In this document: piece after piece, positions 46,215 to 51,862 of the stretch
Numbering within the stretch: position 1 is the first letter of the stretch
How the letters are laid out: each line of letters opens with the position of its first letter
Virus record (IMG/VR): IMGVR_UViG_3300032238_001058
Coordinates: 18,625-82,624 of that record
DNA length: 64,000 nt
Strand: one strand, 5' to 3'
DNA from: a virus
Position numbers and translations under genes: made by a program
Notes under the pieces: generated by a model
Databases searched by the model: none
What the model saw: the letters and a program-made list of their open reading frames with translations, nothing else
Told to the model about the DNA's origin: nothing

Positions 46215-46275
46215 TTAAACAAATACAAACTACAACGCAATCGTAGTTATACTGTTTTAAGCAATATGTTTGTTA

Positions 46276-46761
46276 ATGAAGCTGCGGAAATGCTCTTCTT
46301 GTGGAGTTGAAAAGAATTTGCATGAGCATTTTTATAAACAAGCAAAAGCTAGGGAGCATCGCGCAGAAGGTTATTTAACGCAATGCAAGTGCTGCGTACT
46401 AGAGAAAAATCGCAGAACACATGCTAAACCTAGAAACAAACAAAAGATTTGGGAAAACAAACTCCAATATCGTTACGGTATAACCAAACAAGACTACGAT
46501 TATTTATTTACAAAACAAAAAGGTTGTTGTGCTATTTGCGGCACAGACAATCCTTCAGTCAAAAGCAAAAAACATAAATACTTTTCAGTTGATCATTGCC
46601 ATCAAACAGGTAAAATCAGAGGTCTTTTGTGTGCTACTTGCAATAGCGCAATTGGTTTACTTGGCGATTGCCCTGTGACTATTTCAAAAGCTTCTTTGTA
46701 TTTAAGCAGCACGCAAGATGCTCTTGACAAACCAAGCAGCTTTAAAAGCCTGTCCAACTAA
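46276..46761 (+). CDS. Endonuclease VII-like (Holliday junction) HNH nuclease
   Basis: 161 residues from ATG 46276. N-terminal zinc ribbon (CSSCG...CKCC), then the T4 gp49-type core: YRYGITKQDYDYLF, GCCAICGT, SVDHCHQTGKIRGLLCATCNSAIG. The DHxH and N form the catalytic centre; Cys pairs hold zinc. It may resolve recombination or packaging intermediates, or be a homing variant. Its end overlaps the convergent Dps-like gene by 60 bases. Confidence 0.85.
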   Translation: MKLRKCSSCGVEKNLHEHFYKQAKAREHRAEGYLTQCKCCVLEKNRRTHAKPRNKQKIWENKLQYRYGITKQDYDYLFTKQKGCCAICGTDNPSVKSKKHKYFSVDHCHQTGKIRGLLCATCNSAIGLLGDCPVTISKASLYLSSTQDALDKPSSFKSLSN

Positions 46762-47262
46762 ATCAGCCATGTAGTTGGCAATATCAATAGCACCTACTTT
46801 TTGTGCAACAGACTCAAGTTTTTTGGCTTTCATCCCAAGCTCTTCAAGGTTTTTATAGTACACTCCAAGCATTCCCTTCCACTCATAAGAAGATACGACT
46901 TGCATTTGAGGAGCTGCATCTTTTAATTCACAGCCACATTTTGGGAGATAAAAATCCATTGATCGAATAAACTCAGCAAGCGTATCAAACTGCTCCAAGT
47001 GAGCTTCGTATTGTTTTCCCAAGAATTTATGCACACTAATAAAGTCAGGGCACTCAATATTTAAATGGATCAAATGTGACTGGGTCTCCAGTTCCTTGAG
47101 GTAAGCACAGAGTGAAGTGCATTGCTGGATAAATGCACCCACATCCCCGCCAGCTTTGGACTTAGCAGGAGCTTTGGGTTTGTCCTGGGGTTGAGGAACA
47201 GGAGCAGGTTGTCCTTGGGGCATTTCAACAGGTTGATACTGTTGAGGAGCGGGTGTATACAT
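46702..47262 (-). CDS. Dps-like ferritin-fold protein
   Basis: 186 residues. After a 40-residue Pro/Gln/Lys-rich tail, residues 42-186 follow the Dps four-helix pattern. The ferroxidase ligands of E. coli Dps (H51, H63, D67, D78, E82) map at identical spacing to H66, H78, G82, D93 and E97; only the Asp67 position differs (Gly). Helix D keeps the DIANYMAD...AAWFVKSIL pattern. Dps oxidises ferrous iron with peroxide in a 12-mer shell and coats DNA. Here it could protect phage DNA, scavenge iron, or be a virion part. Family by eye; residue spacing is strong. Confidence 0.75.
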   Translation of the reverse strand: MYTPAPQQYQPVEMPQGQPAPVPQPQDKPKAPAKSKAGGDVGAFIQQCTSLCAYLKELETQSHLIHLNIECPDFISVHKFLGKQYEAHLEQFDTLAEFIRSMDFYLPKCGCELKDAAPQMQVVSSYEWKGMLGVYYKNLEELGMKAKKLESVAQKVGAIDIANYMADLVGQAFKAAWFVKSILRAA

Positions 47263-47288: not shown

Positions 47289-48713
47289 TCATCGAGAGAT
47301 TTCTTCCCAGTCTAATGAAGCATGTACAGTAGAAGTGCTTGCACTTGCTGCAATTACTAAGCTAAGCTCATAAGCAGTACTGGTTAAACCATTACGTTCA
47401 AGCTGGAACTTAAACAAAGCTTCTTTTAATACATCAACCGAAAGGTTTGATTGGTTACTGCCAGAAAAATATCCTTGCGCCAAAACACGACCACCACTAA
47501 AACTGGTCCCAGTCAAGTTGTATTCAATAGAGGAATCAGTACCAGCACTGGTCCAAGTACCACCTGTAGTTGTTCCAGTTGCTACTACACGCCAACAATA
47601 ATTAGCTGTACCAGCAGCAGCCATCATTGACAAAGCTGTTAAAAGAACAATTGCATCTAATGCTGTTGACTTAAGACGTAATGAAATAACCGGATAAAAA
47701 GTTCCTGCAGTCGTTAAGCTAGCCGGAGCAGTAATAGTAGTTCCAATGGCTTGTTGTAGACCACGCAACTCATATCCACCTTCCGACAGTACGGTGGAAC
47801 AGATTTGTTTTAATGTGCTGCTACTTGCTGTTGTAGTTGTGTTTTTAATTTCATACCTTAAAGGCAAAGAAGCTGTAGTTATATAGGTAGCTGTAATTAA
47901 GTTGGCATGGTTAAATGAATGGCAATGAATAAACTTCCCATTAATTATGAATCCCAAACGAACAGTACCTAGACCAAGCCATTCAATATCCATCCACAAG
48001 ATTTGAGCCTTGGTCAAATCCAACGTTAAACCAGAGGGTCCAGTACCATTCAATGGATCAATATTCCAGTTTGATTGGCTAACACTTGTTTCTGTTACAG
48101 CTCCTGTAACCAAACTACGCTCTACAAAGACTGGCTCACTGGTCCCATTTTTTTCTAGGTACATACCATTGTTTGTACCATAGTAACCAACGCGTTGCCG
48201 CAATCCAGCTTTACCAGATTCCAACACAAACGTTGACATAACCAACAGTGATTTTCCAGGCTGGTAAGAAAATACCTTGGTTGTTTCTCGTACAACTTCT
48301 GAGCCTGATGCAGTAGTTACGTTCAGTGTGACCAATCCAGCATTTGCATCAAATGATGTAGTGCCACCAGTACCACTGGATGTTGTCCACAAACCATTGT
48401 CATGATACCGATGACTTGAATCAAATAATGTCAAAGGAGCTGCAACACGTAAACGTCCAAATGCGTCAGCGCCTGTGCCTCCACCTTGAATATTTACCGT
48501 TCCACTGGTGGTAGATGTTACTTCAATAGGTTGTCCACTAGCAGTAACAACAACAATTCCTGAACCATAGTCAGCATACCCAGAGGTACCATCACCATAG
48601 TCATTGATATAACGAATAATCACTTTGGTACCAAAGATACTTTCTACTAGTTTAAACCAATATTTAAAACGTGATGTTAAAATTGGAATACGAGTGACCC
48701 AGTGACATGCCAC
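47289..48713 (-). CDS. Adhesin-like virion protein, paralogue of the divergent 1051-aa protein
   Basis: 474 residues (apparent GTG start; a later start is possible). Thr/Ser/Gly-rich beta protein. An FGRLRVAAPLTLFDSSHRY block, QPGK...VLESGKAGLRQRVG, SNWNIDPLNGTGPSGLTLDL and LRYEIKN have counterparts in the same order in the protein at 48707-51862. Probably a receptor-binding or surface fibre component. Its first codons overlap the divergent gene by seven bases. Confidence 0.65.
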   Translation of the reverse strand: MACHWVTRIPILTSRFKYWFKLVESIFGTKVIIRYINDYGDGTSGYADYGSGIVVVTASGQPIEVTSTTSGTVNIQGGGTGADAFGRLRVAAPLTLFDSSHRYHDNGLWTTSSGTGGTTSFDANAGLVTLNVTTASGSEVVRETTKVFSYQPGKSLLVMSTFVLESGKAGLRQRVGYYGTNNGMYLEKNGTSEPVFVERSLVTGAVTETSVSQSNWNIDPLNGTGPSGLTLDLTKAQILWMDIEWLGLGTVRLGFIINGKFIHCHSFNHANLITATYITTASLPLRYEIKNTTTTASSSTLKQICSTVLSEGGYELRGLQQAIGTTITAPASLTTAGTFYPVISLRLKSTALDAIVLLTALSMMAAAGTANYCWRVVATGTTTGGTWTSAGTDSSIEYNLTGTSFSGGRVLAQGYFSGSNQSNLSVDVLKEALFKFQLERNGLTSTAYELSLVIAASASTSTVHASLDWEEISR

Positions 48714-51700
48714 GTCAATTTGCTAACAGTCAACTTTACGACGTAATTAAAACTCAAGGTGACACCTCAATCACCGGCAGTGAGGTTTTAACAGATCCTG
48801 TTGGCAAGTTGCGCGTTTCAACGCCACAAGCATTAATTGATACGGACTTTGAGTACAGTACTCAATCAACTAAGTGGGAAAGTTTAAACCTGTTAAATAA
48901 TAGGCCCAGTGCTTTTTATGAAGTAACTAGCCCATTAAGTGTTAGCGCAGTATCTGCATCTACCACTACCATTACTGTTACCACCAATATTGTTTTTACT
49001 GGTACTTACTCACAGGCAGGTACTACCACTGTTACTGTCACTGTTGCTGCTGGCCATAATTTACAAACAGGGCAAAGGATTTGGGTTGATTACACCAGTG
49101 GTACTGCTGTTGATGAAGCTGTTATCATTACTGCAACAACAGCAACTACGTTTACTTATATCAGTGCAGGCACTCTTACCACATCTGGCAACGTTAGTAT
49201 TTACTTATCTCCAGCTGTTGGTACACCTATTTTTGTACAGAGCACAACCCAAGCTGTTGCTAATGGTTGGTTTGTAGTTGCAACTTCTCCCGGCACTACT
49301 TTTACTTACGTTGTTCCCAGCACTGCAGGCAGTGGTTCAATTTTAGATTCTACTAAAACATATATTTACCTTGGTAATTTTTACACTGGTGCAGGCATTC
49401 CCCTCACTGGAACCACGGCATTTACTTTTAGCACCACTACAATTACCGTTACCACTACCAATGCTCATGGATTTACTGTCGGCGACGGTATTTTTGTAGT
49501 AGGTTTAACAGCAACTACTAATGCACCAAATGGAAGTTTCATTGTAAAAACTACTCCCAGCGTTAATACATTTACGTATACAGCAGCTGCTACACCCACT
49601 GGAACTATTGGAAACACTGCAGGCGCTGTTAATTTATTCTCACGTCCTTTTGGTAGTGTAATTCACCGTTCTTTTGATGGCGGCGTTGATTTTACTGCAG
49701 GGTATCCCTATACAGGTAATCAATTAATTCGTCAAACTCGCCGTTACTTTCGTTACCAATCTGGTAAAGGTATTCAATTTAGTACAGGAACCTGTTTAAA
49801 ACCAGCTTTCAATGTTAACAGTATTACTGCTGTTGGCTCAACTGTTACTGTTAATTTAAAAACACCGCACAACTTAAACGGTAACTATTTAGCACTTGGC
49901 GGCATTCCTGTTTCAGCTTCTGCAGGTGCAGCATTTACTTATGTTGATAGGGTAGTTACTTGTACTACAAACAACTCTCATGGATTTAATGTAGGAGACA
50001 AAATTTATATTACAGGGACAACTAGTTCAGGAACTAATCCTCCCAATGGAACATGGACAATCTCATCCATTGTTTCGGCTACGCAATTTACGTTTACTGT
50101 TACTAATGCACCAACAGGAACGATTACTTCTACTGTAACATCAAGCCTTTATCCCATTGGAACAGGTCCTTTTGTAACTATTTCAGGTTGCACTGAAGCT
50201 GCTTACAATGGAACCTTTTTGGTTTTAAGTGTTCCCAGTGATGTTTCTTTTACTTATACAGCTTTAGTTGCTCCTACTGTTTCACCTGCCGTTGGTTTTC
50301 CAATTACGGTAAGTCCTGAAAGCTGGTGGAATGCCAGAAACCGCGTTGGTTTGTTTGATGAACAGAATGGATTCTTCTTTGAATTTGATGGACAAACTTT
50401 ATATGCAGTTAAGCGTAGCTCAACAACTCAAATCTCTGGCTCAATTGCTATCAACGCAGGAACAACAACAGTCACTGGAACTAACACTACTTTTTCAAAA
50501 CAGCTAAGCCCTGGAGATGTCATTGTACTTCGTGGAATGACTTACAATGTTCTTTCAATTCTTAGCGATACTTCAATGGTAATTTACCCTGAATACAGGG
50601 GAACTGATAACATTGCTAATGCAGTTGTTAGCAAAAGAATTGAAGAACGTTATCCGCAAAGTCAATGGAATTTGGACCAATGCGATGGGCTAGGCCCAAG
50701 TGGGTTTAATTTAAACCTCACCAAAATGCAAATGGCGTACATTGATTACGCCTGGTATGGTGCAGGTGCAATTCGGTTTGGTTTTAAAGATCAAGATGGA
50801 GAAATTATTTATTGCCATCGCATTCCGAATAGCAACCGTAATACAGAAGCTTATATGCGTTCAGGTAATATGTGTGCTCGTTATGAGTGCAATACTATTC
50901 CTGCGTATACAACACTTGCTGCAACCCTTAGTAACACGGCAACGGATGCAATAACAGTAGCCAGCACTGAGGGATTTCCTAAAAGTGGAATATTAGTTGT
51001 TACCAAACCCGCCAACGTTACTTCCGGATCAGGCTCAACCGTCACTGGTTCTATTGAATACATTCAATATAACAACAAAAATGCAACTCAATTTCTTGGC
51101 TTACGTAGATCCATTACAAGTTTGACAGGACCTGGGGGATTAAACGCAGGGGGTGGTAATACTACATCACAAACAACCACTTATTCGGCAACTGCACCTG
51201 TGCATGTGCAAGCTTATCCTGGACAGTTTTCCAGTACTTTAGCGCACTGGGGATCGGCTGTAATTATGGATGGTGGTTACGACGATGACAAGTCATACAT
51301 TTTCCAAGCTGGTATGACTACAGCATTAAGCAACCTTGGTGCTGGAGCAAGTGCTGCATTAGCAAGTATTAGATTGGCTCCTAGTGTTGACTCTGGCATT
51401 ACAGGTAGTCTTGGAGCGCGTGATTTAATCAACCGTATGCAGTTGACTTTACGTCAAATGGATATTGTTGCAACAGGTGCAGCTGCTATCTTTAGGGTTG
51501 AGTTAGTTCTTAATGGTCGAATTGGTGGGTCTGGTGCTGGTACATTTGCCGCAGCAGGTGGTTCTAGCCTGGCACAAGTAGCACTACATACAGCTACTAC
51601 GCCTTTTACAACCGTTACAGGTGGTGAGACAATTCTTTCTTTCTTTGTTTACACCCCTAGTGTTGTACAACAAGATCTCAATTTAGTTCGTGATTTAGGA

Positions 51701-51862
51701 AACAGCATCCTTGGTGGAGGAACAAATACTACTGTACCAACTAGCGCACTTAATTTGTATCCGGATGGCCCGGATGTTGTTACCATCCGGGTTACTAACG
51801 TCAGCGCTGTGGCTACAAACACAATTGCTGCTCGTATTTCTTGGACAGAAGCACAAGCATGA
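48707..51862 (+). CDS. Large adhesin-like virion protein (1051 aa)
   Basis: 1051 residues. VGKLRVSTPQALIDTDFEY near residue 28 and SQWNLDQCDGLGPSGFNLNL near residue 655 match the paralogue at 47289-48713. Between them are inserted several Thr/Val/Gly-rich modules of about 90-110 residues with the recurring HGFTVGDGIFV / HGFNVGDKIYI / HNLQTGQRIWV pattern. These Ig-like or beta-sandwich repeats lengthen the protein. Likely a large spike or fibre contacting the host. Divergent start shared with its paralogue. Confidence 0.68.
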   Translation: MPRQFANSQLYDVIKTQGDTSITGSEVLTDPVGKLRVSTPQALIDTDFEYSTQSTKWESLNLLNNRPSAFYEVTSPLSVSAVSASTTTITVTTNIVFTGTYSQAGTTTVTVTVAAGHNLQTGQRIWVDYTSGTAVDEAVIITATTATTFTYISAGTLTTSGNVSIYLSPAVGTPIFVQSTTQAVANGWFVVATSPGTTFTYVVPSTAGSGSILDSTKTYIYLGNFYTGAGIPLTGTTAFTFSTTTITVTTTNAHGFTVGDGIFVVGLTATTNAPNGSFIVKTTPSVNTFTYTAAATPTGTIGNTAGAVNLFSRPFGSVIHRSFDGGVDFTAGYPYTGNQLIRQTRRYFRYQSGKGIQFSTGTCLKPAFNVNSITAVGSTVTVNLKTPHNLNGNYLALGGIPVSASAGAAFTYVDRVVTCTTNNSHGFNVGDKIYITGTTSSGTNPPNGTWTISSIVSATQFTFTVTNAPTGTITSTVTSSLYPIGTGPFVTISGCTEAAYNGTFLVLSVPSDVSFTYTALVAPTVSPAVGFPITVSPESWWNARNRVGLFDEQNGFFFEFDGQTLYAVKRSSTTQISGSIAINAGTTTVTGTNTTFSKQLSPGDVIVLRGMTYNVLSILSDTSMVIYPEYRGTDNIANAVVSKRIEERYPQSQWNLDQCDGLGPSGFNLNLTKMQMAYIDYAWYGAGAIRFGFKDQDGEIIYCHRIPNSNRNTEAYMRSGNMCARYECNTIPAYTTLAATLSNTATDAITVASTEGFPKSGILVVTKPANVTSGSGSTVTGSIEYIQYNNKNATQFLGLRRSITSLTGPGGLNAGGGNTTSQTTTYSATAPVHVQAYPGQFSSTLAHWGSAVIMDGGYDDDKSYIFQAGMTTALSNLGAGASAALASIRLAPSVDSGITGSLGARDLINRMQLTLRQMDIVATGAAAIFRVELVLNGRIGGSGAGTFAAAGGSSLAQVALHTATTPFTTVTGGETILSFFVYTPSVVQQDLNLVRDLGNSILGGGTNTTVPTSALNLYPDGPDVVTIRVTNVSAVATNTIAARISWTEAQA

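What the first reader, a model, noticed from the sequence alone, without database searches (positions are those of the whole stretch)
46702..47262. Phage-encoded Dps-like protein with four of five ferroxidase ligands at exact spacing
H66, H78, D93 and E97 reproduce the spacing of E. coli Dps H51, H63, D78 and E82. The fifth ligand, D67, is Gly82. Helix D also matches. A Pro/Gln-rich 40-residue tail replaces the usual short Lys tail. A viral Dps could shield phage DNA from peroxide made in illuminated cyanobacteria, compact DNA or handle iron; a virion role is possible because it sits beside adhesin genes.
Basis: partly seen in the sequence, partly recalled or inferred. Interest (0 to 1): 0.75.

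Follow-up and report, generated by a model that had tools for sequence, protein, structure and literature searches.

The report
Cyanophage Dps-like mini-ferritin, altered iron site
A virus of freshwater cyanobacteria carries its own version of a bacterial DNA-guarding, iron-oxidising protein with one iron-binding residue consistently changed; phage Dps proteins were already known, but this lineage keeps it as what looks like a standard gene beside a surface-protein gene, and it may even be carried in the particle.

Summary
The minus-strand ORF at 46702-47262 (186 aa) matches the Pfam Ferritin domain (E=2e-8), PHROG_3636 and solved Dps proteins. It is predicted as a four-helix bundle whose best PDB matches are Dps. 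H66, H78, D93 and E97 sit at E. coli Dps spacing, and E. coli D67 is Gly82. In 99 distinct viral relatives H63, H66, H78, D93 and E97 never vary, while position 82 is Lys, Gly or Gln, never Asp or Glu. Loss of the low-affinity-site carboxylate is therefore a fixed trait under purifying selection (dN/dS about 0.06-0.08), not decay.

[quoted passage not shown] Dps is also reported in other phages. So this is a variant of a known kind. The tail is not simply Pro/Gln: it ends in a conserved KPKAPAKSK stretch.

New here: in 47 of 65 distinct loci dps follows, by 26-111 nt, a virion structural gene (PHROG_1645; predicted lectin-like fold). In 29 of 65 it is closely followed, usually with a 1- or 4-nt overlap, by one of many interchangeable, mostly unknown proteins. 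Most likely it oxidises iron and shields phage DNA. Packaging in the virion is plausible but unshown.

The parts
46702..47262 (-). dps-like gene, 186 aa; helices A 41-68, B 74-101, C 128-155, D 159-185
   Evidence: Pfam PF00210 2.2e-8, PHROG_3636 1.2e-26, PDB Dps by sequence and fold
47143..47262 (-). N-terminal tail, residues 1-40, Pro/Gln-rich, ending in a conserved KPKAPAKSK motif
   Evidence: pLDDT below 50 over most of it; invariant K28, K30, K36 in A1
46969..47076 (-). ferroxidase-site segment, residues 63-98: H63, H66, H78, G82 (E. coli D67), D93, E97
   Evidence: 99-sequence alignment with E. coli Dps
47289..48713 (-). virion structural protein (PHROG_1645), lectin-like beta fold predicted; 26 nt upstream of dps, same strand
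48707..51862 (+). 1051-aa virion structural protein (PHROG_5838), divergent from the 474-aa gene and sharing a segment with it
46270..46761 (+). endonuclease VII/HNH gene, convergent with dps, 3' ends overlap by 60 nt
   Evidence: Pfam PF02945 3.7e-21

Best explanation
This is a Dps-like mini-ferritin of S-EIV1-type cyanophages (PHROG_3636). Shown: the family, the predicted fold, conservation of the ferroxidase residues except the D67 equivalent, strong purifying selection, presence in all large genomes of the lineage that were sampled, and close linkage to a virion structural gene. Inferred: it forms the usual 12-subunit cage and oxidises Fe(II) at the subunit interface with the intact high-affinity site (H66, H78 and the partner's E97), while the low-affinity site is weakened because its carboxylate is Lys or Gly. 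Also inferred: it touches DNA through the KPKAPAKSK tail, and is made together with virion proteins to keep iron and peroxide from damaging phage DNA in a photosynthesising host.
For: Pfam, PHROG and PDB matches. Four-helix model with Dps as best fold matches. H63, H66, H78, D93, E97 in 99 of 99 homologues. dN/dS 0.06-0.08 against close relatives. Of records fetched by the capsid gene rather than by dps, all six of at least 70 kb carry it, as does S-EIV1. The upstream PHROG_1645 gene lies 26-111 nt away on the same strand in 47 of 65 distinct loci. In E. coli Dps the high-affinity site is H51/H63/E82' and the low-affinity site K48/D67/D78' (PMC9140674). NpDps4 has Asn67 that is not a ligand yet binds iron at its centre (PMC6675082), so loss of this carboxylate need not kill the site.
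Against: No activity, assembly or DNA binding was measured. The NCBIfam Dps equivalog models score far below their cut-offs. The Trp next to the first ligand (E. coli W52) is Leu or Phe throughout. In marine relatives such as L158 the neighbours are on the opposite strand, the tail lacks the Lys motif and no PHROG_1645 gene was found nearby. S-EIV1 lacks the PHROG_1645 gene.
Confidence: 0.5

Rival explanations
1. The protein is carried inside the virion, bound to packaged DNA or the capsid interior, and is delivered with the genome or protects it in the particle.
For: The Dps of Proteus phage Privateer was detected by mass spectrometry in CsCl-purified virions (PMC7881722). Proteins named prohead protease in the viral structure library contain a stretch that matches this fold. 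The gene follows a virion structural gene in most loci.
Against: No proteomics for this lineage could be read; the S-EIV1 paper is not held. Privateer Dps is a distant relative with a canonical ligand set. The gene is outside the main capsid/tail cluster of the window.
Confidence: 0.3
2. The cage is catalytically weak or inactive and works mainly as a DNA-binding or scaffolding shell; Lys at position 82 neutralises the former iron site.
For: Position 82 is K, G or Q and never acidic in 99 sequences; the W52 equivalent is lost; a Lys-rich tail is conserved in 73 of 99.
Against: H66, H78, D93 and E97 are invariant in 99 of 99, which is hard to explain without metal binding.
Confidence: 0.2
3. 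It is an ordinary auxiliary metabolic gene that supports host iron and redox balance during infection, with no special relation to phage DNA or particles.
For: This reading is given for Dps in Lactobacillus and gut phages and for ferritin in freshwater phages (PMC6669764, PMC8008677, PMC6802176).
Against: It is present in all large sampled genomes of the lineage, has a conserved place next to a virion gene, and has no close cellular relative among plasmids (best about 25%) or in the genome scan.
Confidence: 0.2

Closest known systems
DNA-binding ferritin-like protein of Synechococcus phage S-EIV1 (AHV82153.1, KJ410740) and PHROG_3636
   Same: Same family, 64% identity over residues 39-183; same substitution (Gly) at the D67 position; same type of genome
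   Different: In S-EIV1 the upstream virion structural gene is absent and a 488-aa gene overlaps its 3' end
Canonical bacterial Dps (E. coli Dps, H. pylori NAP, P. aeruginosa PA0962)
   Same: Predicted four-helix bundle; H51, H63, D78, E82 equivalents; helix D Lys/Trp
   Different: No carboxylate at position 67, no Trp after the first ligand, longer Pro/Gln/Lys tail, about 22% identity to the best fold match
His-type ferroxidase Dps of cyanobacteria (NpDps4, TeDpsA)
   Same: No liganding carboxylate at position 67
   Different: Keeps Asp at position 78 instead of His; residue after the helix D Trp is Phe/Gln/Met, not His
Dps of Proteus phage Privateer (QIN94861), found in purified virions
   Same: Phage-encoded Dps-family protein
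   Different: 154 aa, short tail, complete canonical ligand set including the Asp, located among nucleotide-metabolism genes
Dps of Gratiaviridae and Lactobacillus phages
   Same: Phage-encoded Dps
   Different: Other hosts and lineages; read as oxidative-stress genes

Membership tests
Dps (mini-ferritin) | Ferritin-like domain by curated profile | tested here: met
   Pfam PF00210 34.5 bits against a cut-off of 24.5
Dps (mini-ferritin) | Four-helix bundle closest to Dps rather than to other ferritins | tested here: met
   AlphaFold2 model with four long helices and no fifth C-terminal helix; all 50 listed Foldseek PDB matches are Dps-type proteins
Dps (mini-ferritin) | Short helix in the B-C loop | tested here: inconclusive
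   Helix 103-108 in a loop of lower confidence
Dps (mini-ferritin) | Full canonical ferroxidase set H51, H63, D67, D78, E82 | tested here: not met
   Four of five invariant; the D67 position is K, G or Q in 99 sequences
Dps (mini-ferritin) | NCBIfam Dps equivalog cut-off | tested here: not met
   16.8 bits against 114 for NF006975, 14.6 against 170 for NF041388
Dps (mini-ferritin) | Dodecameric cage with twofold-interface iron sites | not testable with these tools
   Only monomers can be predicted here
Dps (mini-ferritin) | Fe(II) oxidation with H2O2; DNA binding | not testable with these tools
   Needs purified protein
PHROG_3636 phage DNA binding protein | Match to the family profile | tested here: met
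   1.2e-26, residues 43-183
His-type ferroxidase Dps | His at position 78 and at the residue after the helix D Trp | tested here: not met
   D93 is Asp in 99 of 99; the residue after W177 is F, Q, M or K in the near relatives, never His. Which residue corresponds to NpDps4 His164 is my own alignment. Definition from PMC6675082
Virion protein | Found in purified particles | not testable with these tools
   No proteomics of this lineage was available

The most novel reading that the evidence does not exclude
Dps is the fixed middle member of a late cassette: lectin-like virion protein, Dps, then an interchangeable cargo protein whose start codon overlaps the dps stop. The cargo proteins share either an N-terminal sorting module (about 40 aa) or a C-terminal module, joined to varied domains. 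Dps and cargo would be loaded together into the particle and delivered with the DNA.
Probability: 0.1. Interest if true: 0.75.

Novelty: new variant of a known kind. Interest (0 to 1): 0.42.

Why it matters
Dps proteins in phages have mostly been read as stress genes picked up from hosts. Here is a lineage in which the gene looks standard, is under strong selection, has a fixed change in the iron site and is linked to virion genes. That makes two questions testable in a cultured phage (S-EIV1): whether a mini-ferritin works without the low-affinity-site carboxylate, and whether phages protect or package their DNA with Dps. The variable proteins coupled to dps in sister phages are a separate, largely unannotated set worth study.

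Tried and rejected
Chance match of the ligand spacing: rejected (0.03 expected, one found, then 99 of 99 conserved). A different four-helix protein: rejected by the fold search. Decay of the ferroxidase site: rejected by fixed K/G/Q plus low dN/dS. His-type cyanobacterial centre: rejected because position 78 stays Asp. Recent transfer from a host: no close cellular relative in plasmids (about 25% identity); the genome scan returned only two contigs binned as an archaeal MAG, whose other genes (my reading) and an 89%-identical dps in a viral contig (L162) suggest phage. A tree with cyanobacterial host Dps was not made because no such sequences could be fetched. The S-EIV1 paper is not held. A promoter scan found no sigma-70-like site on the dps strand between the upstream gene and dps, which is weak evidence. 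Pfam and PHROG scans of the downstream proteins gave no usable hits.

Full report
What is there. The minus-strand ORF 46702-47262 encodes 186 aa. It matches Pfam Ferritin above the curated cut-off, PHROG_3636 'DNA binding protein' and solved Dps chains by sequence. AlphaFold2 on 64 relatives gives four helices, A 41-68, B 74-101, C 128-155 and D 159-185, at high confidence, with the first 38-40 residues disordered. The best PDB fold matches are Dps of P. aeruginosa, TpF1 and cyanobacterial Dps, among others.

Ligands. Against E. coli Dps taken from its genome record, H66, H78, D93 and E97 are H51, H63, D78 and E82, and Gly82 replaces D67. The spacing is not expected by chance. Across 99 distinct viral homologues H63, H66, H78, D93 and E97 are invariant. 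Position 82 is Lys in 73, Gly in 25 and Gln in 1, never acidic. Using the E. coli assignment in PMC9140674, the high-affinity iron site is complete and the low-affinity site lacks its carboxylate. Cyanobacterial NpDps4 also has a non-liganding residue at 67 but differs in having His78 (PMC6675082). The closest plasmid Dps by E-value (Blastomonas) has Met at this position, so the loss may not be confined to viruses.

Tail. The tail is Pro/Gln-rich but ends in KPKAPAKSK, with invariant Lys in the close family; a similar motif is in 73 of 99 sequences and missing mainly in marine and other distant relatives. DNA binding by it is inference.

Genome. The window lies in an 82.6-kb viral record largely colinear with cyanophage S-EIV1 (MCP 86% identical, DNA polymerase 69%, primase 56%). 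[quoted passage not shown] Of records fetched by the capsid gene, all six of at least 70 kb have dps. Pairwise dN/dS is 0.06-0.08.

Neighbours. In 47 of 65 distinct loci the gene upstream on the same strand, 26-111 nt away, is a PHROG_1645 virion structural protein; in the window the gap is 26 nt. Its model has a long disordered N-terminus and beta domains resembling lectins. Downstream, 29 of 65 loci have a same-strand ORF starting within -8 to +3 nt of the dps stop, 26 of them overlapping by 1 or 4 nt. Eleven of these carry a shared N-terminal module and twelve a shared C-terminal module. None has a Pfam or PHROG family above noise among those scanned. The window has no such gene; an endonuclease VII gene meets dps tail to tail there.

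How it most likely works. Inferred: a 12-mer that oxidises iron at a modified interface site and binds DNA through its tail, protecting phage DNA. Packaging is possible: Dps was found in purified virions of the unrelated phage Privateer (PMC7881722), and viral-library proteins named prohead protease match this fold over a stretch (the fusion itself was not inspected).

Known or new. Phage Dps is known. What was not found described in the papers that could be searched is the lineage-wide change of the iron site and the conserved cassette. The library is incomplete, so this is not proof of novelty.

Noticed in passing
Loci L009, L013, L019, L021, L023, L039, L064, L071, L081, L082 directly downstream of dps: Interchangeable proteins, mostly starting 1 or 4 nt inside the dps stop. 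One set shares the N-terminal module MDLFQKFLNQV...YKEADKRLGGWLPGGGTASP (some with HExxH); another shares an Ala/Gly-rich C-terminal module ending in GR or FR.
   Followed up: partly
L082:20444-21910 (S-EIV1 AHV82152.1): Annotated as sulfate adenylyltransferase, but neither Pfam nor PHROGs gives any hit; it belongs to the variable proteins after dps.
   Followed up: partly
L277:15081-17621 (S-EIV1 terminase): S-EIV1 TerL (846 aa) has an insert of about 331 aa relative to the window TerL (508 aa) after residue 200; an intein is a candidate.
   Followed up: no
46270-46761: Endonuclease VII gene whose 3' end overlaps the dps 3' end by 60 nt; relatives lie in the dps neighbourhood (about 6 kb either side) in 26 of the 82 loci compared, directly after dps in 11 of 65 distinct ones.
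   Followed up: partly
47289-48713 and 48707-51862: The two divergent virion structural genes share a related segment (about residues 206-305 and 644-728), suggesting duplication or module exchange.
   Followed up: no
L158, L159: Contigs binned as a Euryarchaeota MAG look like phage contigs; they carry distant members of this Dps family with Lys at the D67 position.
   Followed up: partly
BFVD A0A6J7WPK9, A0A6J7XDU5, A0A6J7WIS1: Uncultured phage proteins named prohead protease match the Dps fold over about 143-167 columns, hinting at protease-Dps fusions.
   Followed up: no
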